The notes below the pieces were generated by a model, which saw only the letters and a list, made by a program, of their open reading frames with translations, searched no databases and was not told where the DNA came from. This document shows positions 11,123 to 30,182 of a stretch of DNA of 64,000 nt, piece by piece (position 1 is the stretch's first letter; the number at the start of each line of letters is the position of its first letter). The DNA is from Moraxella nasibovis (GTDB lineage: Bacteria > Pseudomonadota > Gammaproteobacteria > Pseudomonadales > Moraxellaceae): the NCBI RefSeq assembly GCF_029581575.1, contig NZ_CP089975.1:62001-126000 (forward strand), in the 5' to 3' direction. The position numbers and the translations under genes were made by a program.

Positions 11123-13981
11123 ATGGCGAAAATTATGACAAACAGTAAAAATACGGTGGCATATCAAAACACCGAATTGGCAGCAGACGGCGCAGCGTAC
11201 ATCGAGGCGCTTTATGAGCAGTATTTGGCAGACAGTAGCAGCGTGAGTGATGAGTGGCAGCAGTATTTTGCTGACTATCGTGCCGACACGGACGCACCGC
11301 ACAACGCAATCAAAGAACAATATTTGCTACTGGCTCGCAACCAAACCAAAGGTCGCTCTGCATCACAAGGCGGTAGTAGTGACTGCGACCCAAAACAAAT
11401 GGGTGTGCAACAGCTGATCTCTGCCTATCGCCGCCGTGGTCACCGTGTGGCAAATCTGGATCCATTGGGACTACAAAAGCGCCCTGAGATTGAAGATTTG
11501 ACTTTGGCGTATCATGGTTTGTCTGAGGCGGATTTGGACACCGTGTTCCCAACCACTTTGATGAGCATTGGCAAGTCTGAGGCGACATTGCGTGAGATCA
11601 TCGAGATCTGTGAACGCATCTACTGCGGCAGCATTGGCTATGAATACATGCATGTCTTTACCGCCAAAGAGAAAAAATGGTTTGAAAATTATATCGAATC
11701 AAACCAAGGCTACATCCGCTTTGATAAAGACAAAAAGCTAGAAATCTTTGACCGTCTGACCGCCGCCGAAGGGCTTGAAAAATATCTTGCTCGTAAATAC
11801 ACAGGTGTCAAGCGCTTTGGTCTAGAAGGTGGTGAAAGCTTTATTCCTGCCGTGCATGAGATGATTCAGCGCGTGGGTAATTATGGCGCTAAAGAAGTTG
11901 TCATCGGCATGGCGCACCGTGGTCGTTTGAACTTGCTTGTCAATATCATGGGTAAGAACCCAAGCGTCCTATTTGACGAATTTGACGGCAAAATCCAGCC
12001 AACCATCGGCTCGGGCGATGTCAAATACCACAACGGTTTTAGCTCAAATGTCATCACCAAAGGCGGTGAATTGCACCTAGCGCTTGCTTACAACCCATCG
12101 CACCTAGAAATCGTCTCGCCTGTGATGTTAGGCTCGGTGCGTGCTCGTCAAGCTCGCCGCTCTGAAAAATACGGCTACGAAATCGACAGCAAAACCGTAC
12201 TGCCAATCGTGGTGCATGGTGACGCTGCCTTTGCAGGTCAGGGCGTAAACCAAGAAACTTTCCAAATGTCGCAAACTCGTGCTTATAAGACGGGTGGTAC
12301 TTTGCACATCGTCATCAACAACCAAGTAGGTTTTACCACTTCTCGTCCAGAAGACGCTCGCTCGACCGAGTACTGTACGGATGTGGCGAAGATGGTGCAT
12401 GCGCCTGTGTTGCATGTCAATGGCGATGATCCAGAGGCGGTGGTGTTTGCGTCTCAGCTTTTGGTGGATTATCGTAATGAATTTGGTCGTGACATCGTGC
12501 TTGACATCGTCTGCTACCGCCGTAACGGTCATAACGAATCGGACGAGCCATCAGCCACTCAGCCATTGATGTACCAAATCATCAAAAAACTGCCAACCAC
12601 TCGCACGCAGTATGCCGATCAACTGATCTCTGAGGGCGTGATTAGCAAAGAAGAAAGCGGACAGATTGAGGATAGCTATCGTGTGGCGCTTGACAACGGT
12701 GACGATGTCGCCCAGGGTCTAGCCAAAGAGCCAGACACCAGCTTGTTCGTGGATTGGTCGCCTTATGTCGGTCATCAGCTAGAAGATGACTGGGAAACTG
12801 GCGTGGACATTGAAAAGCTCAAATCCTACGGTCAAGCGATGGCAAAAGTGCCAGAAGGCTTTGAATTGCAGCGCCAAGTCGCCAAGGTGTTAGAACAACG
12901 CCTTGCCATGCAAACTGGCGAAGAGCCGCTGAACTGGGGTGCGGCAGAGACTTTGGCGTATGCGTCATTGGTTGATGAAGGTCTGTTGGTGCGTATCACA
13001 GGCGAAGATGTGGGTCGTGGTACTTTCTCGCACCGTCATTCAGAGCTGTACAACCAAAAAGACGGCAGCATGTACATTCCTTTGCAGCACATTCGTGAAG
13101 GTCAAGCACGCTTTGCCACTTACAATTCGCTATTGTCAGAAGAGGCGGTGCTTGCCTTTGAATATGGCTATGCGACCACCATGCCAAACGCTTTGGTTGT
13201 TTGGGAAGCTCAGTTTGGCGACTTTGCCAACGGTGCTCAAGTCGTGATTGACCAGTTCATCTGCTCTGGCGAAACCAAATGGCAACGCTTGGCAGGCTTG
13301 ACCATGCTATTGCCACACGGCTTTGAAGGTCAAGGTCCTGAGCATTCATCGGCTCGCCTAGAACGCTATTTACAGCTTTGTGCCGAAGACAATATGCAGG
13401 TCATCACACCGACCACGCCAGCCCAGATTTTCCACGCACTTCGCCGTCAAGTGGTTCGTCCAGCTCGCAAGCCTTTGATTGTGATGTCGCCAAAATCCCT
13501 ACTTCGCCACCCGCTTGCCACTTCTACCCTAGAAGAGCTTGCGTCTGGCAAGTTTGAAACCGTTCTGCCAGAGATTGACGCATTGGACAACAGTAAGGTG
13601 ACTCGCTTGGTGCTGTGTGGCGGGAAGGTGTATTATGAGCTGCTGGATCAGCGCCGTAAGCTGGGTCTGGATCATGTGGCGATTGTGCGTATTGAGCAGC
13701 TTTACCCACTGCCAGAGGCTCGCATTTTGGCGGAATTTGCCAAATATCCGAATTTGTCAGAAGTGGTATGGGCGCAAGAAGAGCCGCTCAACCAAGGTGC
13801 GTGGTACTACCTATTGCCAGAGATGTATCGTATCATGGCAACTCAGTCGGCGACTTTGGCAACTCCTGCGGCTCGTCCTGCGGCGGCTGCCCCTGCGACA
13901 GGCTCACCAAAAATCCACAACGCCCAGCAAAAAGCACTCATCGCTGATGCACTTGGTGTAGCTGTGGACGCATTGCAGTAA
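11123..13981 (+). CDS. sucA: SucA, 2-oxoglutarate dehydrogenase E1 component
   Basis: Thiamine-diphosphate-dependent decarboxylase of the 2-oxoglutarate dehydrogenase complex. 952 residues, a usual length. The N-terminal helix (YIEALYEQYLADSSSVSDEWQ) is the E2-docking segment. AHRGRLNLLVNIMGK and GDAAFAGQGVNQETFQMS are E1 signatures, the latter in the ThDP fold. RRNGHNESDEP and the C-terminal transketolase-like part (EDVGRGTFSHRHSEL, HGFEGQGPEHSSAR) complete the enzyme. An Ala/Pro-rich linker lies just before the last 30 residues. A second ATG at 11135 is an equally possible start. Followed by a terminator and sucB. Confidence 0.97.
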   Translation: MAKIMTNSKNTVAYQNTELAADGAAYIEALYEQYLADSSSVSDEWQQYFADYRADTDAPHNAIKEQYLLLARNQTKGRSASQGGSSDCDPKQMGVQQLISAYRRRGHRVANLDPLGLQKRPEIEDLTLAYHGLSEADLDTVFPTTLMSIGKSEATLREIIEICERIYCGSIGYEYMHVFTAKEKKWFENYIESNQGYIRFDKDKKLEIFDRLTAAEGLEKYLARKYTGVKRFGLEGGESFIPAVHEMIQRVGNYGAKEVVIGMAHRGRLNLLVNIMGKNPSVLFDEFDGKIQPTIGSGDVKYHNGFSSNVITKGGELHLALAYNPSHLEIVSPVMLGSVRARQARRSEKYGYEIDSKTVLPIVVHGDAAFAGQGVNQETFQMSQTRAYKTGGTLHIVINNQVGFTTSRPEDARSTEYCTDVAKMVHAPVLHVNGDDPEAVVFASQLLVDYRNEFGRDIVLDIVCYRRNGHNESDEPSATQPLMYQIIKKLPTTRTQYADQLISEGVISKEESGQIEDSYRVALDNGDDVAQGLAKEPDTSLFVDWSPYVGHQLEDDWETGVDIEKLKSYGQAMAKVPEGFELQRQVAKVLEQRLAMQTGEEPLNWGAAETLAYASLVDEGLLVRITGEDVGRGTFSHRHSELYNQKDGSMYIPLQHIREGQARFATYNSLLSEEAVLAFEYGYATTMPNALVVWEAQFGDFANGAQVVIDQFICSGETKWQRLAGLTMLLPHGFEGQGPEHSSARLERYLQLCAEDNMQVITPTTPAQIFHALRRQVVRPARKPLIVMSPKSLLRHPLATSTLEELASGKFETVLPEIDALDNSKVTRLVLCGGKVYYELLDQRRKLGLDHVAIVRIEQLYPLPEARILAEFAKYPNLSEVVWAQEEPLNQGAWYYLLPEMYRIMATQSATLATPAARPAAAAPATGSPKIHNAQQKALIADALGVAVDALQ

Positions 13982-16833: not shown

Positions 16834-17131
16834 TCATTAGCCCAATTGCAAAAACGCTCATCAAACTGGTGGGCGTTTTTGTTTTTTATGCTGTCGCTTA
16901 ACTTTAAAAAAAAATTGCTTGCCAAGCTTGCCTATGGCGGAGCGGTTTTCATTAGGTTTTTGGATTTAAAGCTGAATTTGGTCATTTGTCAATTTTTCTG
17001 ATGAATGTAAGAAGCGATTGTAAGTGATTGTATCGATTTTATTATTTATTTGCATGGTTCGTTGTATTATGTTGGCGATTTTGATAAGATAACAAGATAA
17101 AATCCCCCTTTGTGACTTTTTGAAGTTATTC
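16834..17131. other. lpd-ctrA intergenic region
   Basis: About 300 bases marking the border of the capsule locus. A terminator sits at 16850-16887; the remainder is very AT-rich and likely carries the capsule promoter. No ops/JUMPstart-like element was recognised. Confidence 0.5.
16850..16887 (+). terminator. Terminator after lpd
   Basis: AAAAACGC...GCGTTTTT stem (with CC/GG extension in the loop region) followed by GTTTTTT. Confidence 0.75.
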
Positions 17132-18355
17132 ATGAATACTTTTCCCTCAAAAAAGCATCTTGTTGCTGCCTGTGCCGCCGCTCTTTCTTTGGTCGTGACG
17201 GGCTGCCAGAGTGTCAATGCTTGGCAAGCAGGCGCTGGACCTTCCAAAAAAATCATTGAAAACCAAGGCAGAACCATCACCACAGTCAATGAAGATGGCT
17301 CAGTCGAAGAGCAGGTGTCGGGCTTGACAGTGGTTGAGATCGACAGTCGCATTGCGGCATTGTCGTCAAGATTGTCGCCAGTCAGCCGCTTTTCTGATCA
17401 TTATCAATCTGTGCAGAATTTCAACAATCGCATCAGCGCAGGCGATGTGGTCGATGTGTCTATCTGGGAGGCGCCACCTGCTTTATTATTTGGAACGGCA
17501 AATGACATCTCAGGTCTGACAGGCTCTAAGGAAGTCAAATTGCCCGAGCAGATGGTCGATGCCCGTGGTCAGATCAGCATTCCTTTTGTCGGCAAGCTGG
17601 TCGTGATGGGTAAGACGCCCCAAGAAGTGCAGGACATGATCGTGCGTGGGCTACACAGAAAAGCAAACAGCCCAAGTGCGGTGGTGCGCATCGCCAAAAA
17701 CAACTCAGCCGATGTTACCGTGCTGGGCGAGGTCAATAACAGCACTCGAATGCCGCTGACGGGCAAGGCGGAGCGTGTACTTGATGCGGTGGCGGCAGCA
17801 GGCGGCGCAAAGCATCCATCAAGCCGTGTGACCATTCAGCTCAACCGACAAGGTCAAAGCGTGGAAATGCCGTTTGACATGGTGGTCAATGACCCAAGGC
17901 AAAACATCATCTTGCAGACAGGCGATGTGGTGTCGGTGAATTATCAGTCTAAGAGCTTTACGGTGATGGGTGCGACCGCCAGAAATGACGAGATTAACTT
18001 TGAGGCAAGTGGCATTTCACTCATGCAGGCACTGGCTCGGGCAGGCGGTCTTAATGACAACCGTGCCGATGCTCGTGGCGTGTTCATTTTCCGATATGAT
18101 AACATCAACATGCTAAGTCCTGAGCAATATCAGGCACTGCCAGATGAACTCAAATCTAGCCGCATTGTCCCCATCGTGTATCGCATGAATCTGCGTGACC
18201 CTGTCAGCTATATGACGGCGCAGAATTTTCCCATCAAAGACAAAGATGTGATTTATGTATCAAATGCGCCGGGCGCGGATTTTGCCAAGTTTATGGCTTT
18301 GATCGGGCAAGGCGTAGGTCTTGTGAATGCGGTTAATGATTTGTCAAATAATTAA
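17132..18355 (+). CDS. ctrA: CtrA/BexD/KpsD-like outer-membrane capsule export lipoprotein
   Basis: Outer-membrane polysaccharide export channel of an ABC-dependent (group 2-like) capsule system. A lipoprotein signal ends in LVVTGC with the lipidated Cys at residue 25. A polysaccharide export (PES) domain begins around residue 90 (NRISAGDVVDVSIWEAPP), followed by two SLBB-type repeats (TVLGEVNNSTRMPLTG and SFTVMGATARNDEINF). The ATG at 17132 is used; an in-frame TTG lies 12 bases upstream at 17120. 407 residues. First gene of the capsule locus and likely co-transcribed with the three exporter genes that follow within a few bases of each other. Confidence 0.92.
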   Translation: MNTFPSKKHLVAACAAALSLVVTGCQSVNAWQAGAGPSKKIIENQGRTITTVNEDGSVEEQVSGLTVVEIDSRIAALSSRLSPVSRFSDHYQSVQNFNNRISAGDVVDVSIWEAPPALLFGTANDISGLTGSKEVKLPEQMVDARGQISIPFVGKLVVMGKTPQEVQDMIVRGLHRKANSPSAVVRIAKNNSADVTVLGEVNNSTRMPLTGKAERVLDAVAAAGGAKHPSSRVTIQLNRQGQSVEMPFDMVVNDPRQNIILQTGDVVSVNYQSKSFTVMGATARNDEINFEASGISLMQALARAGGLNDNRADARGVFIFRYDNINMLSPEQYQALPDELKSSRIVPIVYRMNLRDPVSYMTAQNFPIKDKDVIYVSNAPGADFAKFMALIGQGVGLVNAVNDLSNN

Positions 18356-18378
18356 CTAGAATCATAAAGGTATTGGTT

Positions 18379-19485
18379 GTGCGAAAATTAAGAGGCAGTT
18401 CGGTTTATTTAGACCCCTTGTTTTGGTTGTGTGTGGTCATTCCGACCCTATGCTTGGTGATTTATTATGGCTTTATCGCCTCAGATGTGTATACTTCTGA
18501 GTCGAGATTTGTCATCAGAAGCCCTAACCAGCAGTCGGTATCGGGCATTGGTCTTGCCCTTAGAAATATCGGGTTTAATGCCTCATCAGATGACAGCTAT
18601 CTGGTGCGGGACTATCTCACCTCTCGTGATGCAGTTCAAAACTTAAAAGATGATCTGAACGTCCAAGAGAAATACTCAGCCGACACCGTGGATGTGGTGA
18701 GTCGTTTTGGGGTGGTTGGCAGTCCGACTTTTGAGAATTTTTATGAGTATTTTAATAAGAAAATCAAAGTCGTCTATGATCCAGCCTCGTCAATTTCTTC
18801 GTTGCAAGTTGAGGCTTATACCGCCGAAGATGCTCAGAAAATTAACGAAGAGCTGTTAAAAATGAGCGAAGTTGTTATTAATAGAATTAATAACAATGCC
18901 AAAAGTGATATTTTAGTCGCCGCTGAAAACGAAGTTAAAGAGGCGCAAGAGGCATCAAGACAGGCTGCAAACAGCTTGGCAGAGTATCGAGTCAGCAATG
19001 AGGTGTTTAATCCAGAAGGGCAGTCTACCTTGCTTTTGCAAGAGATTTCTAAGCTACAAGATGCCTTGATTCAGACAGAGACTCAGCTAACACAAGCGCG
19101 ACTATTGACTCCTGATAACCCACAAATCAAAGCGATGGAATCTCGCATTCAGACGCTTAACAAAAGCATTAAAGAAAAGTCTGCACAAGTGACGGGTCCA
19201 AGAGATGGCTCGCTTTCCAACCGTTCTGTCGAATTTCAGCGTTTGCAACTTGAAAAAGAGTTGGCGGACAAGCAGTTGGTTTCGGCGATGGCGAACTATG
19301 AGCAGTCAAAGAATGAGTTTAATAAGAAACAGCTTTATTTAGAGCGTCTGGCTCAGCCGTCCTTGCCTGATGAAGCCACCAAGCCAACACGCTTTAAGAA
19401 TATCCTATCAGGCTTTGCCTTTGGGCTTTTGGCTTGGGGTGTGCTACGGTTGTTTGTGGCTGGGGTGAGAGAGCATCGTGACTAG
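18379..19485 (+). CDS. ctrB: CtrB/BexC/KpsE-like inner-membrane capsule export protein
   Basis: Polysaccharide co-polymerase-type protein linking the inner-membrane ABC transporter to the outer-membrane channel. It has a membrane helix near residues 14-35, then a Wzz-like segment (TSESRFVIRSPNQQS) and a long periplasmic helical region with heptad character (about 190-330). A second C-terminal helix (GFAFGLLAWGVLRLFVAG) follows. Start: AAAGG at 18366-18370 is 8 bases from GTG at 18379, whereas a TTG at 18373 is too close; GTG is preferred (368 residues). It overlaps the next gene by 8 bases. Confidence 0.9.
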   Translation: MRKLRGSSVYLDPLFWLCVVIPTLCLVIYYGFIASDVYTSESRFVIRSPNQQSVSGIGLALRNIGFNASSDDSYLVRDYLTSRDAVQNLKDDLNVQEKYSADTVDVVSRFGVVGSPTFENFYEYFNKKIKVVYDPASSISSLQVEAYTAEDAQKINEELLKMSEVVINRINNNAKSDILVAAENEVKEAQEASRQAANSLAEYRVSNEVFNPEGQSTLLLQEISKLQDALIQTETQLTQARLLTPDNPQIKAMESRIQTLNKSIKEKSAQVTGPRDGSLSNRSVEFQRLQLEKELADKQLVSAMANYEQSKNEFNKKQLYLERLAQPSLPDEATKPTRFKNILSGFAFGLLAWGVLRLFVAGVREHRD

Positions 19486-20305
19486 CGATATGAATGAAAA
19501 AACATCCCATACTAAAGAAATGGCTGAATTTTATAAATCATTAAAAATTCAGCTCAGAGTGATTTATGCTCTTTTAATGCGTGAAATCATTACCCGTTAT
19601 GGCAGGCATAACATTGGCTTTGCATGGCTATTTGTTGAGCCGATGATTTTTACGCTGGGCGTGGCTGCTTTATGGAATGCGACCAAATCAGCGCATGGTG
19701 GTGACATCGCTATCATTCCTTTTGCGGTAATTGGCTATTCAACGGTACTCTGTTGGCGTAATGGAGCCAGTAGAGCGGCTAAGGCGGTTGATGCTAATAT
19801 GGGTCTTTTATATCATCGGAATGTCAAAGTCATGGATGTCTTTTTGGCGAGGGCTATTTTGGAAATTGTTGGTGCGACGGCTTCTTTTTTGCTATTGTCC
19901 ATCATTTTTCATTTGGCGGGAGCGATGGAGGCGCCCAATAATTTTTTATACATGGCGTATGGATGGTTTTTATTGATTTGGTTTACGATCGCACTGGCTT
20001 TTATTGTGGGCGCTTTGTTTGAGATGTCTGAGGTTGTAGATAGACTTTGGCACGCCTTAACCTATCTATTATTCCCATTGTCAGGTGCTGCTTTCTTTGT
20101 ATATTGGATTCCTGAAGGACTGCGCCATTATTTGCTTTATTTACCCATGGTGCACGCAACTGAAATGATTCGTCATGGCTATTATGGTGATATTATCCCG
20201 ACTTTTGAGAGTGTGGGTTATATCATTTGGTGTAATATGGTGCTGTCATTTTTGGGATTGGTGTTGGTGCGTTATATCACCAGAAAGCTGGAGTCATCAA
20301 GTTGA
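19478..20305 (+). CDS. ctrC: CtrC/BexB/KpsM-like capsule ABC transporter permease
   Basis: ABC-2 type permease that moves the finished capsule polymer across the inner membrane. 275 residues, about six membrane helices. The family signature MREIITRYGRHNIGFAWLFVEP lies near residue 30, and the C-terminal half shows the helix-rich DRLWHALTYLLFPLSGAAFF block. The GTG at 19478 overlaps ctrB; an ATG at 19490 is an alternative start. It overlaps ctrD by 4 bases, as expected for a coupled permease-ATPase pair. Confidence 0.93.
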   Translation: MTSDMNEKTSHTKEMAEFYKSLKIQLRVIYALLMREIITRYGRHNIGFAWLFVEPMIFTLGVAALWNATKSAHGGDIAIIPFAVIGYSTVLCWRNGASRAAKAVDANMGLLYHRNVKVMDVFLARAILEIVGATASFLLLSIIFHLAGAMEAPNNFLYMAYGWFLLIWFTIALAFIVGALFEMSEVVDRLWHALTYLLFPLSGAAFFVYWIPEGLRHYLLYLPMVHATEMIRHGYYGDIIPTFESVGYIIWCNMVLSFLGLVLVRYITRKLESSS

Positions 20306-20949
20306 TTGAGTTGATTGATGTAGTTAAGTCCTATCCTTTTGGTAAGGGTAGGAGGAATGTCCTAGAAGGGGTGAATTTAACCGTTCGACCCGGTGAGAAA
20401 ATTGGCATCATGGGCAGAAATGGTGCGGGTAAATCTACACTCATCCGTATTTTGGGTGGAGTTGAGCAGCCTACCTCTGGAATCATTCGCAGAGACATGA
20501 ATATTTCTTGGCCGCTTGCCTTTACGGGTGCATTTCAAGGAAGTCTGACTGGGGCTGACAATGTTCGCTTTGTTTGTCGTGTGTATGATGTGGATTATAA
20601 ACAGGCGATGGAAGTGGTGGACTCTTTTGCTGAGCTCGGCAAATATCTGTATGAGCCTGTTAAGGTGTACTCTTCTGGTATGCGAGCGAGATTAGCTTTT
20701 GCGATTTCCCTTGCGGTGGATTTTGATTGCTATTTAATTGATGAAGTGATTTCGGTGGGCGATGCCAGCTTTCATCGAAAGTGTGAGATTGAGCTGTTTG
20801 AAAAAAGAGCGCACAAATCCATGATTATCGTTTCACATGAACTTCATAACATCAAAGATTACTGTAATAAGACAGCAATCCTAAATGACGGTAGATTGAC
20901 GGTTTATGAGAATATCGATGAATCCATTCATATTTATCAGAATTTGTAG
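20302..20949 (+). CDS. ctrD: CtrD/BexA/KpsT-like capsule ABC transporter ATPase
   Basis: ATPase of the capsule exporter, 215 residues. Walker A GRNGAGKST at about 39-46, ABC signature variant YSSGMRARLAF near 123-133, Walker B CYLIDE near 143-148 followed by SVGDASFHRKC, which is typical of polysaccharide-exporting ABC proteins, and a switch His in IIVSHEL. The start is a TTG overlapping the ctrC stop; no better ATG exists nearby, and the MIELIDVVKSYP start fits the family. Confidence 0.93.
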   Translation: MIELIDVVKSYPFGKGRRNVLEGVNLTVRPGEKIGIMGRNGAGKSTLIRILGGVEQPTSGIIRRDMNISWPLAFTGAFQGSLTGADNVRFVCRVYDVDYKQAMEVVDSFAELGKYLYEPVKVYSSGMRARLAFAISLAVDFDCYLIDEVISVGDASFHRKCEIELFEKRAHKSMIIVSHELHNIKDYCNKTAILNDGRLTVYENIDESIHIYQNL

Positions 20950-20982
20950 ATTTTGATGCCCTAATTAATATTGTGGTGTTTT

Positions 20983-21930
20983 ATGATTTATGTTTCTTTA
21001 CCAGTTCATGAAAAATTTGATGTCATTGCCAATCAGCTGCAAAATTTCAAAAAATACCTGCCAGAGGCGATGATTGTCCTGCACTTGTCTGCTGGTGCAC
21101 ATTTTTCTACAAAGGAGCTGGATGGTTTTTTAAAACTAAATAGGGTTGATAATTACATCATTAACCCAGTGCAGCTAAATGCTGCGTGGGGCAGTATTAT
21201 TGAGGCGCATTTAAGCAATGTCGAATTTGTTTTGCAGCAGGGGGATGCGCAGAAAGTTATTTTTCATTCGTCTAATGACATGCTAATCAGAGAGGGCTTA
21301 TCTTCTTATCTCAAAGACAAGACTTTTTTGTTTCATCACCGCGAGGTATTTCCTAAATCTCATTGGTGGCCAGCTAATGTGGCGATTGATGACATTGCGT
21401 TTACGGACTGGTTGAGTGTTTATGGTGGTGCTATCGTTGCCTCTCAGATAGAAGGTTCAATGTATGGTGTTGATTTTCTAAGAGAGTTTAATGATCAGTA
21501 TCAGTGGCGCTATAAAAAGTCTTTTTCATCGCTGAGTTACCCAAGGGAGGAGTTTTTTTTCTCATCATTAGCTCGTGCCTTTGGGATTGTTGCTGATGGC
21601 TTGCCTTATGTCTTTTCTGAGGTGCATCGCTTTGATAAGAAATTATGGGCATATTATGAAAATATGCCACTATTATTAAATAATAACCCGCTATCAAAAA
21701 AAATAAAAAAGCAGTTGATTGATAAACTGTTTGATTATGGTGATTATAAAATTTCTATCAAAGATATTGAAGCGATTAGAAATCAAGATGATAGGCATTT
21801 TGCATCCATCGAATATTTGAGTGATGGAAATAATAGATGGCGTATACATACGATTGATAATCTTTTTGCTGTTAAGCGAGTTCCAAGAATGATGACTGAT
21901 AAAATCAGACAATACATTAGTAGCGAGTAA
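20983..21930 (+). CDS. Putative capsule glycosyltransferase, GT14-like
   Basis: 315 residues, no membrane segment or signal. The N-terminal part (IYVSLPVHEKFDVIANQLQN) and the segment FHSSNDMLIREG, with a later YPREEFFFSSLAR, resemble core-2/I-branching beta-1,6-GlcNAc transferase-like (GT14) proteins: a beta-strand opening, an S-x-N/Q-D motif and an acidic E-E-x-F-F near the acceptor site. The match is from memory and only moderate. The ATG at 20983 is preferred to a TTG at 20971. The sequence is clearly AT-richer than the metabolic genes around the locus. It overlaps the next gene by one base (TAATG). Confidence 0.55.
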   Translation: MIYVSLPVHEKFDVIANQLQNFKKYLPEAMIVLHLSAGAHFSTKELDGFLKLNRVDNYIINPVQLNAAWGSIIEAHLSNVEFVLQQGDAQKVIFHSSNDMLIREGLSSYLKDKTFLFHHREVFPKSHWWPANVAIDDIAFTDWLSVYGGAIVASQIEGSMYGVDFLREFNDQYQWRYKKSFSSLSYPREEFFFSSLARAFGIVADGLPYVFSEVHRFDKKLWAYYENMPLLLNNNPLSKKIKKQLIDKLFDYGDYKISIKDIEAIRNQDDRHFASIEYLSDGNNRWRIHTIDNLFAVKRVPRMMTDKIRQYISSE

Positions 21931-23501
21931 TGAGAATGAATCTGTTACAGCACATTATTTTGCCGAAAAATTCTATTTATGCCAAAGATGTGAGGTCTTA
22001 TCTGAAGGCATCTGAAAAAGTTCGTCTTACTCACGATGTCTTGAATATGCCTGCTTATCAAACAGTAGACTTTGATACTTATTTTAACTATTTTGATAGT
22101 AAAAAATGGTTGGATTTTGGACAGATAGACAGTCTTTTTGTTAAAGGTGGTATTTGTGGCGTGGCACTGCTTGAAATCGTTGGAGTCAAGCGATTTGGCA
22201 ATCGCCATCATCAGTCGTTGGTGTATAGTACAGAAGTTGGCTGTTCTGGTAAGTGGATTGATTTTGTTGAGGATATTCGAGATTTTCAAGATTACGAGGC
22301 TCTATTTGTGCGCATCTGCACCCTTGAAGAGCATTGCCAAGTACAATCACTTGCTTTTGGTACTTACACACCTGCAAAGCGGCAAGTAAAACTGGGCATT
22401 TGTTTTATTGATGGATGGTCTCAAAAAGTTTATGATGAAATTGCTCAATTGAGTAATTCAAATGCCTTAGAAGTGCAAATCTTTGGTCGGACGGAACAGC
22501 TTCAGCCTCTTTCACAAATCCATTCTTTGATTGAGCAAATCAAATCAATCAAAGAAAGCGATAGAACCCACATTCTTTCGATATCCACTCAGGACTTCGT
22601 TTCGGCAGAATGCGTATTTAGAGCATTTAGATTCTTTGAGATGGTTTTTGCTGAGAGGCAGGATGTGGTGGTTTCTGGTGAGGGTATTTCAGCATTTGAC
22701 GAGAGCGATTGGGCATTGCTGAACCAATTGTCATCCGTGCTTAAGGGTGGTTCAAAAAATTATAGCTTTGATTGGCGATTTTGTGCTTTTAATAAATTAG
22801 TTTTCCAGGCTTATGGATTGCCGCTGCCATTGTCCTTGCCTCAGGCTGCCAGCGAGTATCAAAGCAGAATCTATAAAGAAATCGTGCCAATTAATGGTGT
22901 TGCATTCTATCGGGACATGCAGACGAAGCCTTCCTTGATTCAAATGGAGTATTACCATATTCGAGATGAGCTTATTGAAGAATTATTAAAGTCAAATCCG
23001 AGTTTGGAGACTTTAAAAAGCTTGGTGTGGGATAGATTCTGGCACAATATTCACACCTATCACTATGTGGCAGCGCGCCTTAATTTGTATGCGCTTGATC
23101 ATATTACTAAGGGTGTTTATAAGGCGGATGCGCAAGATATTGAGCGATATGTTAACAATCTTTATGCTAAAGAAAATAAATTTACCAGACATCGACAAGT
23201 GACCCAATCTGACTTGACGAAAACTGTGATGGATAAGACATTGTTAAATGTTATCAGACCTTATGTTGGTCTGGGTAGACCAGCGGTGCTATCTGATAGA
23301 GCAGATTCAAAGCAGTTTGTAGGCAGAAATCATGTATTGATTGCTGATGGTCATGGAGGTGCGGAGGTTGCTAGAATTCGTCGAAAAAAATTAGGATTGC
23401 TTGTTCGGCATGCTACGAAATCTTATGCTAATTTTATCAAAAATTATCACAAGATTCGCAATGATCTTCTTGAATATCGCAATGACAATAAGCAATATTA
23501 A
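21930..23501 (+). CDS. GlfT2-like pseudo-galactofuranosyltransferase, predicted non-catalytic
   Basis: 523 residues. Overall layout matches mycobacterial galactofuranosyltransferase GlfT2: an N-terminal beta domain (about 5-150, with FDTYFNYFDSKKW against FxTYFNAFPxSYW), a GT-A domain (150-345) and a helical C-terminal region. A recalled alignment anchored on GLPLPLSL (296-303) and YYHIRDEL (341-348) puts the metal-binding DDD at STQ 219-221, the base Asp-Asp at Ala306-Ala307 and the metal His at Arg328. The NxGGxGG loop is also absent. The frame is intact, so this looks like a retained pseudo-enzyme rather than decay. Possible roles are acceptor binding, scaffolding or partnering the intact GlfT at 29274-30182. 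It might also be a divergent active enzyme with another chemistry. Confidence 0.6.
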   Translation: MRMNLLQHIILPKNSIYAKDVRSYLKASEKVRLTHDVLNMPAYQTVDFDTYFNYFDSKKWLDFGQIDSLFVKGGICGVALLEIVGVKRFGNRHHQSLVYSTEVGCSGKWIDFVEDIRDFQDYEALFVRICTLEEHCQVQSLAFGTYTPAKRQVKLGICFIDGWSQKVYDEIAQLSNSNALEVQIFGRTEQLQPLSQIHSLIEQIKSIKESDRTHILSISTQDFVSAECVFRAFRFFEMVFAERQDVVVSGEGISAFDESDWALLNQLSSVLKGGSKNYSFDWRFCAFNKLVFQAYGLPLPLSLPQAASEYQSRIYKEIVPINGVAFYRDMQTKPSLIQMEYYHIRDELIEELLKSNPSLETLKSLVWDRFWHNIHTYHYVAARLNLYALDHITKGVYKADAQDIERYVNNLYAKENKFTRHRQVTQSDLTKTVMDKTLLNVIRPYVGLGRPAVLSDRADSKQFVGRNHVLIADGHGGAEVARIRRKKLGLLVRHATKSYANFIKNYHKIRNDLLEYRNDNKQY

Positions 23502-23527: not shown

Positions 23528-23911
23528 ATGAAACGCTTAATCTTTGATTTGGATGACACATTGTCAAAAACCACCGGTGGTGATTATGCTAATGCTGAAC
23601 CCATCATGCCAGTCGTTGAAAAGCTAAAAGAGTATCACGCACAAGGATTTGTCATTGTAATTAGCACTAGCCGAAACATGCGTACTTATGAAGGCAATGT
23701 CGGTGCCATCAATAAAAATACTCTGCCCATCATTATTGACTGGCTAAACAAGCATGACATTCCTTTTGATGAGATTTATACAGGCAAGCCGTGGTGTGGA
23801 TTTGAGGGTTTTTATATTGACGATAAGGCGGTGCGCCCAGATGAGTTTGCAAATCTGTCTTATGAAGAGCTAAGAGAATTGGTCAAGGTAGGTAAAAATG
23901 TTACTAATTAA
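23528..23911 (+). CDS. HAD-family capsule biosynthesis phosphatase (BcbF/EcbF-like)
   Basis: Small HAD phosphatase of 127 residues. Motif I DLDDTL at 7-12, motif II Ser/Thr in ISTSRN near 45-50, motif III Lys87, and motif IV acidic pair IDD at 97-99. Size and motif spacing fit the capsule phosphatase family of Pasteurella and Campylobacter capsule loci (HAD IIIC type). It probably removes phosphate from a sugar- or polyol-phosphate intermediate. GAGGAA lies ahead of the ATG. It overlaps the next gene by 14 bases, so the two are translationally coupled and likely act in one pathway. Confidence 0.75.
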   Translation: MKRLIFDLDDTLSKTTGGDYANAEPIMPVVEKLKEYHAQGFVIVISTSRNMRTYEGNVGAINKNTLPIIIDWLNKHDIPFDEIYTGKPWCGFEGFYIDDKAVRPDEFANLSYEELRELVKVGKNVTN

Positions 23912-25460
23912 TTCTGCTGCTTATGTCGGCCCAGAATTTCAGGCAGAAGTTGGGGTCATTCCACCTTGCATGCTACCGATTGGCAATAAAAAAATCATTG
24001 AGTTGCAAGTCGCTAAGCTGCGAGAAGTTTTTGGCGATGAAAAGATCGTACTTTCTTTGCCAAAAAGCTATAAGCTTGCCATCAATGAAGCCAATGTATT
24101 GGCGGAACTGAACATCAAGACGCGCTATGTGCCAGATGAGTTTACGCTCGCTGAGGCGATATTGTATGTTTTGAACACAGAGACTGACAGCTTTGATGAG
24201 CAAATCCGTCTGCTGCATGGCGATACTTTAATTAGCGACATTCCTAAGGTTTGCGATGTGCTGACCATTTCAAAATTTCCTCGTGCCTATAATTGGCAAA
24301 AAGAAAAACTGCCAACAGGTGAAGAGGTGATTTGGAATGGCTATTTTTGCTTTTCCGATAGGCTGAATTTTATCAAATCATTGGCAATTGCTCGAGGTGA
24401 TTTCGTTAAGGCGGTTAACCATTATCGTGAGACGCATGCAGTAGAGTTATATGAAACCAAAGATTGGCATGATTGTGGTCATATCAACCCTTATTTCAAT
24501 GCCAGAGCCACAATTACCACACAACGCTCGTTCAATTCGCTACTGATAGATGATGGTGCGGTTACAAAAAGCAGTACTAATCATAAAAAAATGCAGGCGG
24601 AAATCAACTGGTTTAAATCATTGCCTGCCAGCCTTAGAAAATTTACCCCTCAATTTATTGAGGAAGGGATTGGCAATGATGGCGTAACACCTTATTATTG
24701 TTTGGAGTTTATGCCAATTCTGCCACTAAATGAGCTGTATGTACATGGCAGGAATCCTGCGATTTTTTGGAGAAAGATTTTTAGTCTGGTAAAAGACTAC
24801 TTTGAAAAAGCCAGAAATGCTGATGCTGCGCTGGATAAAAACATGGAAGCCATCATTAGCTCGTCCGATCGGCTTTATAAGGATAAAACTTTATCTAGAA
24901 TTGCTAAATACGCCGAAGAGGTCGGACTAAATCTAAATAAGCAAATTGTTTATCAAAACAAGGCTCTGGGTTCGATTAATGACATTGTTAATGATAGCAT
25001 CCAAAAGACTTTGAATCTGCCATGTGTAGCGACCATCATGCACGGCGACTTATGTTTTAGTAATATGTTGTTTGATGCACGAGGACAGCGCATTAAACTG
25101 ATTGATCCACGAGGCATTGATGAAGATGACAATCTGACCATCTTGGGCAATCAAACCTATGATTTGGCGAAATTAACGCACTCTGTCATTGGTATGTATG
25201 ACTTTATCATCGCAGGGCGCTATCGTCTAGTGGAGAATGTTGAAAATAGCGAAATAGAGTTTGATGTTGATGAGAGGCTGTCGCTGATTCAGCAGGAATA
25301 TCTAGATACGATATTTTTTGAAGACATCACAGTCAAACAAGTCATGCCTGCGGTAGTGCTATTGTTCTTGTCCATGCTTCCTTTGCATGATGACAGACCT
25401 GATCGCCAAAAAGCCATGCTAACTAACGCATTTAGACTGTATCATGACTTTGTACTTTAA
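23898..25460 (+). CDS. Nucleotidyltransferase-kinase fusion protein (capsule precursor synthesis)
   Basis: 520 residues, apparently two enzymes joined. Residues 1-200 resemble a sugar nucleotidyltransferase: beta-strand INSAAYV, a degenerate loop followed by PPCMLPIGNKKIIELQ, and LLHGDTLISD as the metal-Asp region. The usual GxGxR-xP loop is not seen. Residues 215-520 resemble an aminoglycoside/choline-kinase-like domain: N-lobe Lys224 and Glu235, the catalytic loop HGDLCFSN (382-389) and the metal loop IDPRG (402-406). With the upstream phosphatase it suggests dephosphorylation, rephosphorylation and NDP activation of a small precursor. The substrate is unknown. Choline- or polyol-type precursors are possible. 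Confidence 0.65.
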   Translation: MLLINSAAYVGPEFQAEVGVIPPCMLPIGNKKIIELQVAKLREVFGDEKIVLSLPKSYKLAINEANVLAELNIKTRYVPDEFTLAEAILYVLNTETDSFDEQIRLLHGDTLISDIPKVCDVLTISKFPRAYNWQKEKLPTGEEVIWNGYFCFSDRLNFIKSLAIARGDFVKAVNHYRETHAVELYETKDWHDCGHINPYFNARATITTQRSFNSLLIDDGAVTKSSTNHKKMQAEINWFKSLPASLRKFTPQFIEEGIGNDGVTPYYCLEFMPILPLNELYVHGRNPAIFWRKIFSLVKDYFEKARNADAALDKNMEAIISSSDRLYKDKTLSRIAKYAEEVGLNLNKQIVYQNKALGSINDIVNDSIQKTLNLPCVATIMHGDLCFSNMLFDARGQRIKLIDPRGIDEDDNLTILGNQTYDLAKLTHSVIGMYDFIIAGRYRLVENVENSEIEFDVDERLSLIQQEYLDTIFFEDITVKQVMPAVVLLFLSMLPLHDDRPDRQKAMLTNAFRLYHDFVL

Positions 25461-25493
25461 TCGGCTTTGAATAATTTGAATAAGGATAAGAAT

Positions 25494-26213
25494 ATGTTCG
25501 TAATTCCAATGGCGGGGTTGTCTAGTCGATTTTTTAAGGCTGGCTACGAAGTACCAAAATATCAGTTAGACATGGGTGGCAAAACCGTTTTTGCTCGTTC
25601 GCTAGAATCTTTCAAGACTTATTTTGAGACAGACTTGTTTGTCATTATTTTGCGTGATGTGTATGACACAAAAGCTTTTGTTGAGCGTGAAATGCAAAAT
25701 CTTGGCATCAAAAACTATCAGCTTTGCGTTCTAGATGGTGAGACCGAAGGACAGGCAGAAACGGTGTATTTGGGTACCCAAGATGCCTCAAATGATGAAG
25801 AGCTGTATATTTTTAACATTGATACATTTAGACATGGCTTTAAAAAGCCTGAGTTTGCCACAGAATGTGACGGATATCTGGAGGTCTTTAAGGGTGAGGG
25901 TGACCATTGGTCTTTTGTGGGTATTGATGAAAACGATAGGGTTGTTCGCACTACTGAAAAAGAGCGCATTTCAGATTTATGCAGCAATGGGCTTTATTAT
26001 TTTAGAAAAGCAGGCGAGTTTAAGGCGCTTTTTGAAAGAACCAAGTCAGAGAAGTTGTATGTGAAAGGCGAGCTTTATATCGCACCCATGTACAATTTGA
26101 TGTTAGAGCAGGGTGCGGATATTCGTTATGATTTGATTGAACTATCACAGATTGATTTTTGTGGTACGCCAGATGAATATGTGGCTCTAAAAGAAAAATA
26201 TCAAACAGCATAA
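25494..26213 (+). CDS. Sugar/polyol-phosphate nucleotidyltransferase-like protein
   Basis: 239 residues. The N-terminus VIPMAGLSSRFFKAGYEVPKY is a variant of the nucleotidyltransferase loop (A/G-G-x-S-x-R-F), and the later FNIDTF matches the metal-binding acidic position. GELYIAPMYNLML resembles the sugar-binding end seen in similar enzymes. An ATG at 25494, with AAGGA about 8 bases before it, is better than an in-frame TTG at 25467. It lies 33 bases after the kinase fusion and probably supplies or modifies the same precursor pool. The exact substrate cannot be read from the sequence. Confidence 0.65.
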   Translation: MFVIPMAGLSSRFFKAGYEVPKYQLDMGGKTVFARSLESFKTYFETDLFVIILRDVYDTKAFVEREMQNLGIKNYQLCVLDGETEGQAETVYLGTQDASNDEELYIFNIDTFRHGFKKPEFATECDGYLEVFKGEGDHWSFVGIDENDRVVRTTEKERISDLCSNGLYYFRKAGEFKALFERTKSEKLYVKGELYIAPMYNLMLEQGADIRYDLIELSQIDFCGTPDEYVALKEKYQTA

Positions 26214-26228
26214 TTCAACAGAGGCATC

Positions 26229-27314
26229 ATGATTAACGATAAAGACATCACCGTCATCTATCAAGGGGCGGTCAATGTGTCAAATTTGGGTACAGGCAAC
26301 AGCGACAGCAGTGATTTTTTGTATAATGTCCAAAAAACACGCACTGCTTTGCCGAATGCAACCATCATTTTATCCACTTGGTCAAATACGGTGCTTCCTA
26401 GCGATTATGATACTCCTGAGAAATTGGGTGTGGATAAAATCGTGTATAGCGATGATCCTGGCGCTCTGCCCAATATTAAGTTTGATAATCTTCCTGCTAA
26501 CAATGCTAATCGTCAACTACTGTCAACCCTGACAGGCTTAAAGGCTACCACCACACGCTTTGCCATGAAGTTAAGGACGGACAGTTTTTTGACGGGGACA
26601 GGCTTTAAGAAAGCATACTCGCAGTTTGAGCAACAAGTATCTGCCACAAAAAAAGGTAGGGATTTTCAGTATAGTCCCATTGTGCTGTGCTGCTACTTTA
26701 CCATTGACCCGAATGTCTATGAGCATATGGCGTTTCATATGAGCGACTGGGTACATTTTGGAGAAACAAAGACTCTTTTAAAGTATTGGGATGTGCCATT
26801 TTTCAATTTTGAAGATGCAACCTTTTATGAGCGACATCCCCATGACAAATCATCGAATTTTTTTGACAGGCAGTTTCGTACTCGCATCGCTGTCGAGCAA
26901 TATTTGACTACGGAATTTGCCAAAAAGTTCGGCTATGCTGTCCCAGTTTTTCATAATCAAATTGATAAGAAAATTTTATTTGATTTTGATAAATTTTTGG
27001 CGGAAAGAATGATTGTTTTGGATCTTGATCAGTTTGGGGTGGATTTGCCAAAATACAAGTGGGTGAGAAATTCTGATTTTATTTCCATGGACATTCTGAT
27101 GCACGCTGATTGGTATGGGCGCTTTGTGGCGCATTGGCAACCAAAGGCTGTGGATAAGCAGGTCTATGCCCTATTCAAAAAGCGCCAACATCAAAAAGTT
27201 GCCAGCAAATGGGTGGCAAAAGTTACAGGGTCGTTTGCAGGCTACTGGTGGCATTCGCCAGAAAATAAAAAGCGCAAGCGTTTTGTGGAAAAGGCGATTA
27301 AATTTATTCCGTAA
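26229..27314 (+). CDS. WavE-family polysaccharide biosynthesis protein
   Basis: 361 residues without a signal or membrane helices. The opening [10 protein letters not shown], then [15 protein letters not shown] and KLRTDSFL, matches the WavE lipopolysaccharide-synthesis family, thought to be glycosyltransferases. The R-x-D in KLRTDSF is the likely nucleotide/metal site. The C-terminal half has aromatic-rich conserved blocks ([15 protein letters not shown]). AGAGG precedes the ATG. The sugar transferred is unknown. Confidence 0.65.
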
Positions 27315-27331
27315 TTGATAGGGGTTTAGGC

Positions 27332-29270
<1,939 letters not shown>

Positions 29271-29273
29271 TCT

Positions 29274-30182
29274 ATGAAAAAAATTGCTGTTGTTATTACT
29301 ACTTTTAATTCGTCAAAATATATTGGGCGATTGATTGAGAAATTACTTTGCCAATCTTATCCGATAGATAAAATTATCATTGCTGATAATAACAGTTCGG
29401 ATAATACTTGCGATATTATTCAAGAATTTCAAAATAATAAAATCCACTTGCACCAATTAAATGCCAATTTAGGCGGTGCAGGTGGATTTGCCAAATGTTT
29501 TGAGATTGCCAAAAATAGCGATTGCGATTATATTGTCAGTTTTGATGACGATGCTTATCCACCAAGCGATGACTTTATTCGTGATATGGTGGCGATTAAA
29601 GAGCAATATAATTATGATGTGATTTCGGCATTGGTGGTGGATAGTGATAACCACGCATTGTCCGCTTATGAATATAAAGTGGGTGGCAATAAAAGCACTA
29701 AGATTGACGATATTCAACAAGTGCTGTTAATTGATAATGACATTAAATTATTTAATGGCGTGCTATTTGATAAAAAAGTCGTTGAAAAAATAGGTATTCC
29801 AAGGGCGGAGTTTTTTATTCGTGGCGATGAACAAGAGTATAAAACTCGAATATTAAATGCTGGCTTTAAAACAGCGGTATTTACAAAGGCGATAGTTTAT
29901 CATCCCACTTCGGTGAATGAGTATATTTATATTAAAGGTAAACGCTATCATCATTTGGATTCACCTTTTAAGTTATTCTATTCCACTCGAAATCAAGCCT
30001 ATATGCTAAGACTGCGGACGGATATTAGCACAGTTAAAAAATCAAAAATTGCCGTGAAGCATTTTTGGCGATACAGTTGGTTTTATTTGGTTTATAAAAA
30101 AGACATTAAAAATTATTATTTGTGGCTTAAAGCCTTTATCTTCGGGCTGATGGGCCATATGAATAATGATTTTAGAGGCTAA
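29274..30182 (+). CDS. GlfT-type galactofuranosyltransferase (GT2)
   Basis: 302 residues, GT-A fold. Nucleotide-binding start VVITTFNSSKYIGRLIEKL, the GlfT-specific loop NLGGAGGF at 65-72, metal-binding DDD at 91-93, base candidate GDEQEY at 184-189 and metal His210 in YHP. This set is what galactofuranosyltransferases of the GlfT1/GlfT2/WbbI kind show. Immediately after glf, it most likely transfers Galf from UDP-Galf onto the growing capsule chain. It is one of the most AT-rich genes in the window. Confidence 0.85.
   Translation: MKKIAVVITTFNSSKYIGRLIEKLLCQSYPIDKIIIADNNSSDNTCDIIQEFQNNKIHLHQLNANLGGAGGFAKCFEIAKNSDCDYIVSFDDDAYPPSDDFIRDMVAIKEQYNYDVISALVVDSDNHALSAYEYKVGGNKSTKIDDIQQVLLIDNDIKLFNGVLFDKKVVEKIGIPRAEFFIRGDEQEYKTRILNAGFKTAVFTKAIVYHPTSVNEYIYIKGKRYHHLDSPFKLFYSTRNQAYMLRLRTDISTVKKSKIAVKHFWRYSWFYLVYKKDIKNYYLWLKAFIFGLMGHMNNDFRG

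What the first reader, a model, noticed from the sequence alone, without database searches (positions are those of the whole stretch)
21930..23501. Full-length GlfT2-like protein with every catalytic residue replaced
A 523-codon uninterrupted gene in the capsule locus aligns, from memory, along its length with GlfT2: the N-terminal beta domain, the GT-A domain and the C-terminal helices. Yet the metal DDD is STQ (219-221), the base Asp-Asp is AA (306-307), the metal His is Arg328 and the NxGGxGG loop is missing. An intact GlfT with all of these motifs is encoded 6 kb downstream, next to glf. This suggests an undescribed non-catalytic partner in galactofuran capsule synthesis, for instance setting chain length or binding acceptor.
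Basis: partly seen in the sequence, partly recalled or inferred. Interest (0 to 1): 0.8.

Follow-up and report, generated by a model that had tools for sequence, protein, structure and literature searches.

The report
Capsule sugar-transferase relative without active site
A bacterial capsule gene cluster carries a full-length relative of a sugar-joining enzyme that has lost its active site, while a related bacterium keeps an intact version at the same spot; the dead version seems to have been kept for a non-catalytic job.

Summary
Window 21930-23501 (+) is a 523-codon open frame homologous over its length to GlfT2-type galactofuranosyltransferases (Pfam Glft2_N E=1.8e-7; hhalign against 8 relatives, its closest left out, probability 99.3 over 494 columns). 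The catalytic motifs are gone: TFxR deleted, NxNxGGxGG replaced, DDD is STQ, DD is AA. In the 17 relatives aligned, DDD, WW, DD and the glycines of GGxGG are present in 17 of 17.

Key new fact: Moraxella boevrei has a collinear locus with an intact 580-aa homologue at this position (34% identical). The window gene is most simply an orthologue that lost catalysis. Its GT-A branch is 3.6 to 4.8 times the orthologue's; its C-terminal branch is not detectably longer. Unconstrained drift would have put stops in it (0 of 200 simulations stop-free at 0.1 substitutions/site).

Best reading: a retained pseudo-glycosyltransferase, probably a scaffold or stimulator of the capsule-synthesis complex.

The parts
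21930..23501 (+). P0001, 523-aa catalytically eroded GlfT2-type protein (a second in-frame ATG at 21936 aligns with the M. boevrei start)
21945..22346 (+). Glft2_N domain (residues 6-139), 31.6 bits; the intact M. boevrei protein scores 27.4
22509..22538 (+). residues 194-203 (L-S-Q-I-H-S-L-I-E-Q) at the place of the NxNxGGxGGFxRG loop; the donor-site segments TFxR and N/DN are deleted in frame
22584..22592 (+). STQ (219-221) in place of the metal-binding DDD (DDD in 17 of 17 relatives)
22773..22778 (+). WR (282-283) in place of WW (17 of 17 relatives)
22845..22850 (+). AA (306-307) in place of the base DD (17 of 17 relatives)
22911..22913 (+). Arg328 at the GlfT2 His site; His in only 6 of 17 relatives
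22923..23498 (+). C-terminal domain (332-523): branch not detectably longer than the intact homologue's; basic end (15 K/R against 7 D/E in the last 70 residues)
20983..21930 (+). 315-aa protein of unknown family (the ORF list starts it at 20971), 52% identical to its M. boevrei counterpart; its stop overlaps the P0001 start
17120..20949 (+). four genes taken as capsule export genes (ctrA-D-like; names recalled, no family search run), collinear with M. boevrei
23528..26213 (+). EcbF/BcbF-type capsule phosphatase (TIGR01689), 520-aa and 248-aa proteins; 82-86% identical to M. boevrei
26229..28111 (+). WavE-family protein (PF07507) and hexapeptide acetyltransferase, at the place of one 430-aa gene in M. 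boevrei
28104..30182 (+). glf (name recalled, no family search run; 82% identical to M. boevrei) and GlfT1-like transferase (57%)

Best explanation
P0001 is a pseudo-glycosyltransferase: the orthologue of a capsule GlfT2-type enzyme (motifs intact in M. boevrei) that in this Moraxella lineage lost donor binding, metal binding and the base but stayed under selection as a protein. Shown here: homology, collinear locus, motif loss, an open frame, and accelerated evolution that is strongest in the GT-A domain and not detectable in the C-terminal domain. Inferred: it still docks through its C-terminal (and probably N-terminal) domain to the membrane and to partner proteins (GlfT1-like, WavE, the 315-aa neighbour, the exporter) and acts without catalysis, as a scaffold or a stimulator of chain extension, while the transfer step it once did was dropped or taken over when the neighbouring genes WavE and acetyltransferase came in.
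For: Collinear locus with an intact homologue. Conserved columns are lost in GT-A and mostly kept outside it: 11 of 14 kept outside against 8 of 37 inside, Fisher p=0.0003. Branch ratio P0001/M. boevrei for GT-A 4.76, 4.67 and 3.64 in three alignments, 5% bounds 2.32, 2.67, 2.00; C-terminal 0.88, 1.68, 0.93 with intervals that include 1. A simple neutral model without indels leaves 15% of 200 frames stop-free at 0.02 substitutions/site, 1.5% at 0.05, none at 0.1. Codon positions 1/2/3 are 49.5/57.9/38.7% identical to M. boevrei, the pattern of a protein under constraint for much of its history. The 12 other genes compared with M. boevrei are of matching length, and the genome has three PF05159 (KpsC/S-type) matches in two open frames, so the pathway looks whole. 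The two acidic motifs are essential in the GlfT2-like Kingella PamC (PMC12269835, section 7 read). Precedent: in the A. pleuropneumoniae serovar 7 system catalytically inactive Cps7A mutants still stimulate long chains (PMC11666461, section 11 read); KfiB of E. coli K5 is described as a non-catalytic accessory (PMC12834895, passages).
Against: No second motif-less homologue was found: among 348 family genomes 12 matched at E 0.1, of which only the window and M. boevrei strongly (4e-38); the other 10 (E 6.7e-4 to 0.096, 36-136 residues, half with stops inside) were not followed up. The three other genomes with a match among 369 of the class all have the motifs, one copy split over two frames. 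No population data. The C-terminal domain evolves fast even in motif-bearing relatives, so an equal rate there is weak evidence of constraint, and in one alignment P0001 is 1.7 times longer. The N-terminal domain is accelerated too (about 2.3-fold, 5% bounds 1.10-1.39). Partner, polymer and activity are untested; no structure.
Confidence: 0.55

Rival explanations
1. Vestige: the gene lost its function when the capsule structure changed and persists only because stops would be polar on downstream genes of the operon, or because decay is recent; the protein does nothing.
For: GT-A and N-terminal domains are accelerated; the gene is the most diverged of the 13 compared with M. boevrei (34% against 52-86%); it overlaps the preceding gene by one base; no other genome searched has a motif-less form.
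Against: Recent decay fits badly: drift of 0.05 substitutions/site leaves 1.5% stop-free frames, whereas the GT-A branch exceeds the homologue's by about 1.6 to 2.1 amino-acid substitutions per site. Conserved columns outside GT-A are kept 11 of 14. Protection from polarity alone would not be expected to conserve amino acids in the C-terminal domain (34-35% identity, rate like the intact protein).
Confidence: 0.27
2. Acceptor- or chain-binding module: the N-terminal beta domain and the remodelled pocket hold the growing polymer and set its length, without a scaffolding role.
For: The N-terminal domain gives a better Glft2_N score than the intact homologue (31.6 against 27.4 bits); W282, K333 and R345, conserved in 17, 16 and 17 of 17 relatives, are kept.
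Against: A segment of about 28 residues in the GT-A domain is missing and the second W of WW is lost; the N-terminal domain is accelerated; no direct evidence of sugar binding; no structure.
Confidence: 0.1
3. An active enzyme with a rebuilt active site, using other acidic residues (for example Asp222, Glu227, Glu309 or Asp329).
For: Acidic residues lie one to a few positions from the lost motifs.
Against: The nucleotide-binding segments TFxR, N/DN and NxNxGGxGG are deleted or replaced as well as the acids; nothing suggests another donor site. With a single motif-less sequence, conservation of substitutes cannot be tested.
Confidence: 0.08

Closest known systems
GlfT2-type protein of Moraxella boevrei DSM 14165 (NZ_KB903810.1, L022 10001-11743, 580 aa)
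   Same: Same place between the 315/319-aa gene and the EcbF-type gene, same domain order, 34% identity over the length
   Different: Has TFNR, NNG, NxNLGGAGG, MDDD, GWW, RGDD and WHD; P0001 has none of these whole and lacks about 28 residues of the GT-A domain and the C-terminal FW tail
GlfT2 (PDB 4fix; related chains 9dtp, 9oa3) and Kingella PamC
   Same: N-terminal Glft2_N domain, GT-A core, C-terminal helices (domain names partly recalled)
   Different: Active polymerases whose DXD and DD are essential (PMC12269835 section 7; PMC7168186 passages); both are lost here. PamC itself was not aligned here
Cps7A of the A. pleuropneumoniae serovar 7 capsule system
   Same: Works like it, as a hypothesis: its presence but not its activity is needed for long chains (PMC11666461 section 11)
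   Different: A PF04464 glycerophosphotransferase (PMC11666461 passages), naturally active; no homology claimed
KfiB of E. coli K5
   Same: Described as a non-catalytic accessory of a capsule synthase complex or of export (PMC12834895, passages)
   Different: Homology not tested here

Membership tests
GlfT2-type GT2 galactofuranosyltransferases (homology) | N-terminal Glft2_N domain | tested here: met
   PF17994 31.6 bits, cut-off 26.1
GlfT2-type GT2 galactofuranosyltransferases (homology) | Full-length alignment through GT-A and C-terminal domain | tested here: met
   hhalign residues 4-513, probability 99.3; P0001 and the M. boevrei protein are separated from the other 16 relatives by a branch with support 100
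GlfT2-type GT2 galactofuranosyltransferases (active enzyme) | Metal-binding DDD | tested here: not met
   STQ; DDD in 17 of 17 relatives
GlfT2-type GT2 galactofuranosyltransferases (active enzyme) | Catalytic DD | tested here: not met
   AA; DD in 17 of 17
GlfT2-type GT2 galactofuranosyltransferases (active enzyme) | UDP-Galf site TFxR, N/DNG, NxNxGGxGG | tested here: not met
   deleted or replaced except one glycine, G186
GlfT2-type GT2 galactofuranosyltransferases (active enzyme) | Transfer of Galf from UDP-Galf | not testable with these tools
   needs an assay
Retained pseudoenzyme | Catalysis lost while the protein stays under selection | tested here: inconclusive
   Open frame, codon pattern and domain-wise rates support it; no population data
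Retained pseudoenzyme | Fold kept | not testable with these tools
   structure prediction switched off

The most novel reading that the evidence does not exclude
A GlfT2-type polymerase turned by loss of its active site into a dedicated non-catalytic subunit of a bacterial capsule synthase, controlling assembly or chain length of a Galf-containing capsule: a natural counterpart of the 'presence but not activity' effect seen with inactive Cps7A mutants.
Probability: 0.4. Interest if true: 0.7.

Novelty: new variant of a known kind. Interest (0 to 1): 0.52.

Why it matters
If the protein is needed for capsule assembly, it is a natural separation-of-function case: an enzyme stripped of its chemistry by evolution whose remaining role can be read directly, with an intact homologue in the same operon context as control. 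It bears on how capsule enzymes assemble and control chain length. It also warns that naming the gene a galactofuranosyltransferase would be wrong here. Seven text searches of the held library (two of them returned no paper) listed no title on a natural catalytically dead GlfT2 relative; most subscription papers are not held.

Tried and rejected
Rejected: a different family or chance resemblance (and the intact homologue in the collinear locus). Rejected: frameshifted or interrupted gene (one open frame). Rejected: 'the intact GlfT downstream is a second GlfT2'; it is GlfT1-like and the genome has no other match at E 0.01. Weakened: Arg328 for the metal His as a sign of inactivity (His in 6 of 17). 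Led nowhere: tblastn of P0001 on plasmids (no match); viral-contig scan (none of 264 candidate stretches confirmed); PF17994 in 22 genomes of the genus (only the window over the cut-off, one other at E 0.094 over 37 positions); TIGR01689 as a way to capsule relatives (own genome only, 1 of 303); profile search of the order of G351 (2 of 62 genomes, one of them G351 itself); PDB searches for the 315-aa neighbour (best E 0.16) and WavE (none at E 1). Limits: 12 of the 29 plasmid and phage-record hits were fetched for the panel; L004 was left out of the panel because it is split over two frames; one panel member (L042) runs off its record. Bootstraps were few (40, 100 per domain) and some ratios ran to extreme values.

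Full report
What was checked. The open frame at 21930-23501 (+) is real and uninterrupted. Pfam Glft2_N matches residues 6-139 above its cut-off, while no other Pfam model matches at E 1; the intact M. boevrei protein matches both Glft2_N and Glycos_transf_2 above their cut-offs. phmmer links P0001 to galactofuranosyltransferase chains 9dtp and 9oa3 (E 4e-5) through residues 4-149 and, weakly, 281-351; for GlfT2 4fix the E-value is only 0.052. A profile comparison with eight relatives that excludes the closest one aligns residues 4-513 with probability 99.3. The motif statements in the finding are correct: STQ for DDD, AA for DD, Arg328 at the His site, no NxGGxGG.

The decisive comparison. 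A search of 348 genomes of the same family found 12 with a match at E 0.1; apart from the window itself only one is strong (G607, E 4e-38), the other ten being weak stretches of 36-136 residues that were not followed up. Its capsule locus is collinear with the window: export genes, a 319-aa gene of unknown family, the GlfT2-type gene, the EcbF/BcbF phosphatase, 520- and 248-aa proteins, glf, GlfT1-like, galU and pgi (several names recalled), with one gene of 430 aa at the place of WavE plus the acetyltransferase. At the position of P0001 it has a 580-aa protein with the motifs intact. The 12 other genes compared are 52-86% identical; this one is 34%. None of the 21 other genomes of the window's genus has a P0001 match at E 0.001, and with the Glft2_N model only the window passes the cut-off among 22. 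That the window gene lost its motifs, rather than never having had them, follows from their presence in all relatives examined.

How much is lost. A panel of 17 relatives was built: M. boevrei, a Clostridiales MAG, three unnamed gammaproteobacterial genomes, and 12 of the 29 hits in plasmid and phage records. Of 51 columns identical in at least 15 of 17, P0001 keeps 19: 5 of 5 in the N-terminal domain, 8 of 37 in GT-A, 6 of 9 in the C-terminal domain. As a control, each relative was scored against columns conserved in the others: they keep from 38 of 55 (L040) and 43 of 58 (M. boevrei) up to 51 of 52. DDD, WW, DD and the glycines of GGxGG are in 17 of 17. The site called metal His varies (His in 6 of 17), so that part of the finding carries little weight. 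Because the conserved columns of GT-A are mostly catalytic, this count shows what was lost but cannot by itself separate selection on the fold from drift. In Kingella PamC, mutating the equivalent DXD or DD abolished galactan synthesis in vivo and in vitro (PMC12269835, section 7), so galactofuranosyl transfer by P0001 is very unlikely.

Is it decaying or kept? Three lines. First, in a maximum-likelihood tree P0001 pairs with M. boevrei (support 100), and the branch lengths differ by domain: GT-A 2.60 against 0.55, N-terminal 1.36 against 0.56, C-terminal 0.82 against 0.92. Column bootstraps and two other alignments give GT-A ratios of 3.64-4.76 with 5% bounds of at least 2.0, N-terminal 2.25-2.40 with bounds of 1.10-1.39, and C-terminal 0.88-1.68 with intervals that include 1. 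Without the columns where at least 12 relatives agree, the GT-A ratio is 1.86 with a 5% bound of 1.02, so much of the excess is motif loss. Second, random mutation of this sequence under a simple model without indels leaves no stop in 15% of 200 runs at 0.02 substitutions per site, 1.5% at 0.05 and none at 0.1; the observed change is far larger. Third, identity at codon positions 1, 2 and 3 is 49.5, 57.9 and 38.7%, and the order 2 > 1 > 3 holds within each domain. Together these argue that most of the catalytic erosion happened while the frame, and probably the C-terminal domain, was still under selection. The argument is limited: the C-terminal domain is loosely conserved in the other members too, part of the divergence lies on the M. 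boevrei branch and before the loss, the gene may have been exchanged between capsule loci, and no other strain of the species was available.

Is the pathway alive? The other capsule genes have the same lengths as in M. boevrei within a few residues, ctrA- and ctrD-like differing by 8 and 24, and the genome carries KpsC/S-type genes elsewhere (three PF05159 matches in two open frames). Apart from the GlfT1-like protein there is no other match to the GlfT2-type profile in the genome, so no intact copy stands elsewhere.

Mechanism. Active GlfT2 forms a homotetramer whose face with hydrophobic and positively charged residues is proposed to attach it to the membrane (PMC7168186, passages). P0001 has a basic C-terminus (15 K/R to 7 D/E in the last 70 residues; 14 to 9 in M. 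boevrei). In another ABC-transporter-dependent capsule system, catalytically inactive Cps7A still stimulates long-chain synthesis (PMC11666461, section 11). The most economical explanation is therefore that the protein's contacts within the capsule complex outlived its chemistry when the repeat unit changed. That it contacts any particular partner, or affects chain length, is inference.

Verdict. Observation confirmed; the non-catalytic reading is supported; the specific role is open. It is a new variant of a known kind: a pseudoenzyme derived from a GlfT2-type transferase. Text searches of the held literature listed no description of one, within the limits of that library.

Noticed in passing
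window 20983-21930; L022 9045-10004: The gene directly before P0001 encodes a 315/319-aa protein without a Pfam or NCBIfam match at E 1 (window copy) and with no better PDB match than E 0.16, 52% identical between the two loci and overlapping the GlfT2-type gene in both; a candidate new glycosyltransferase or partner.
   Followed up: partly
window 23528-26213: EcbF/BcbF phosphatase with a 520-aa protein (only weak kinase- and nucleotidyltransferase-like matches) and a 248-aa nucleotidyltransferase-like protein, 82-86% identical to M. boevrei; possibly a cassette that makes an activated donor.
   Followed up: no
window 26229-28111; L021 (reverse strand, ORF 12203-13495 of its reverse complement): WavE plus acetyltransferase in the window stand where M. 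boevrei has a 430-aa gene with no blastp match in the window at E 1e-5: a serotype-type swap close to the eroded gene.
   Followed up: partly
   Followed up: no
L042, L043 (MT837049.1, MT839750.1): Unverified 'Bacteriophage sp.' records from human faeces carry motif-bearing GlfT2-type genes; they may be bacterial contigs labelled as phage.
   Followed up: no
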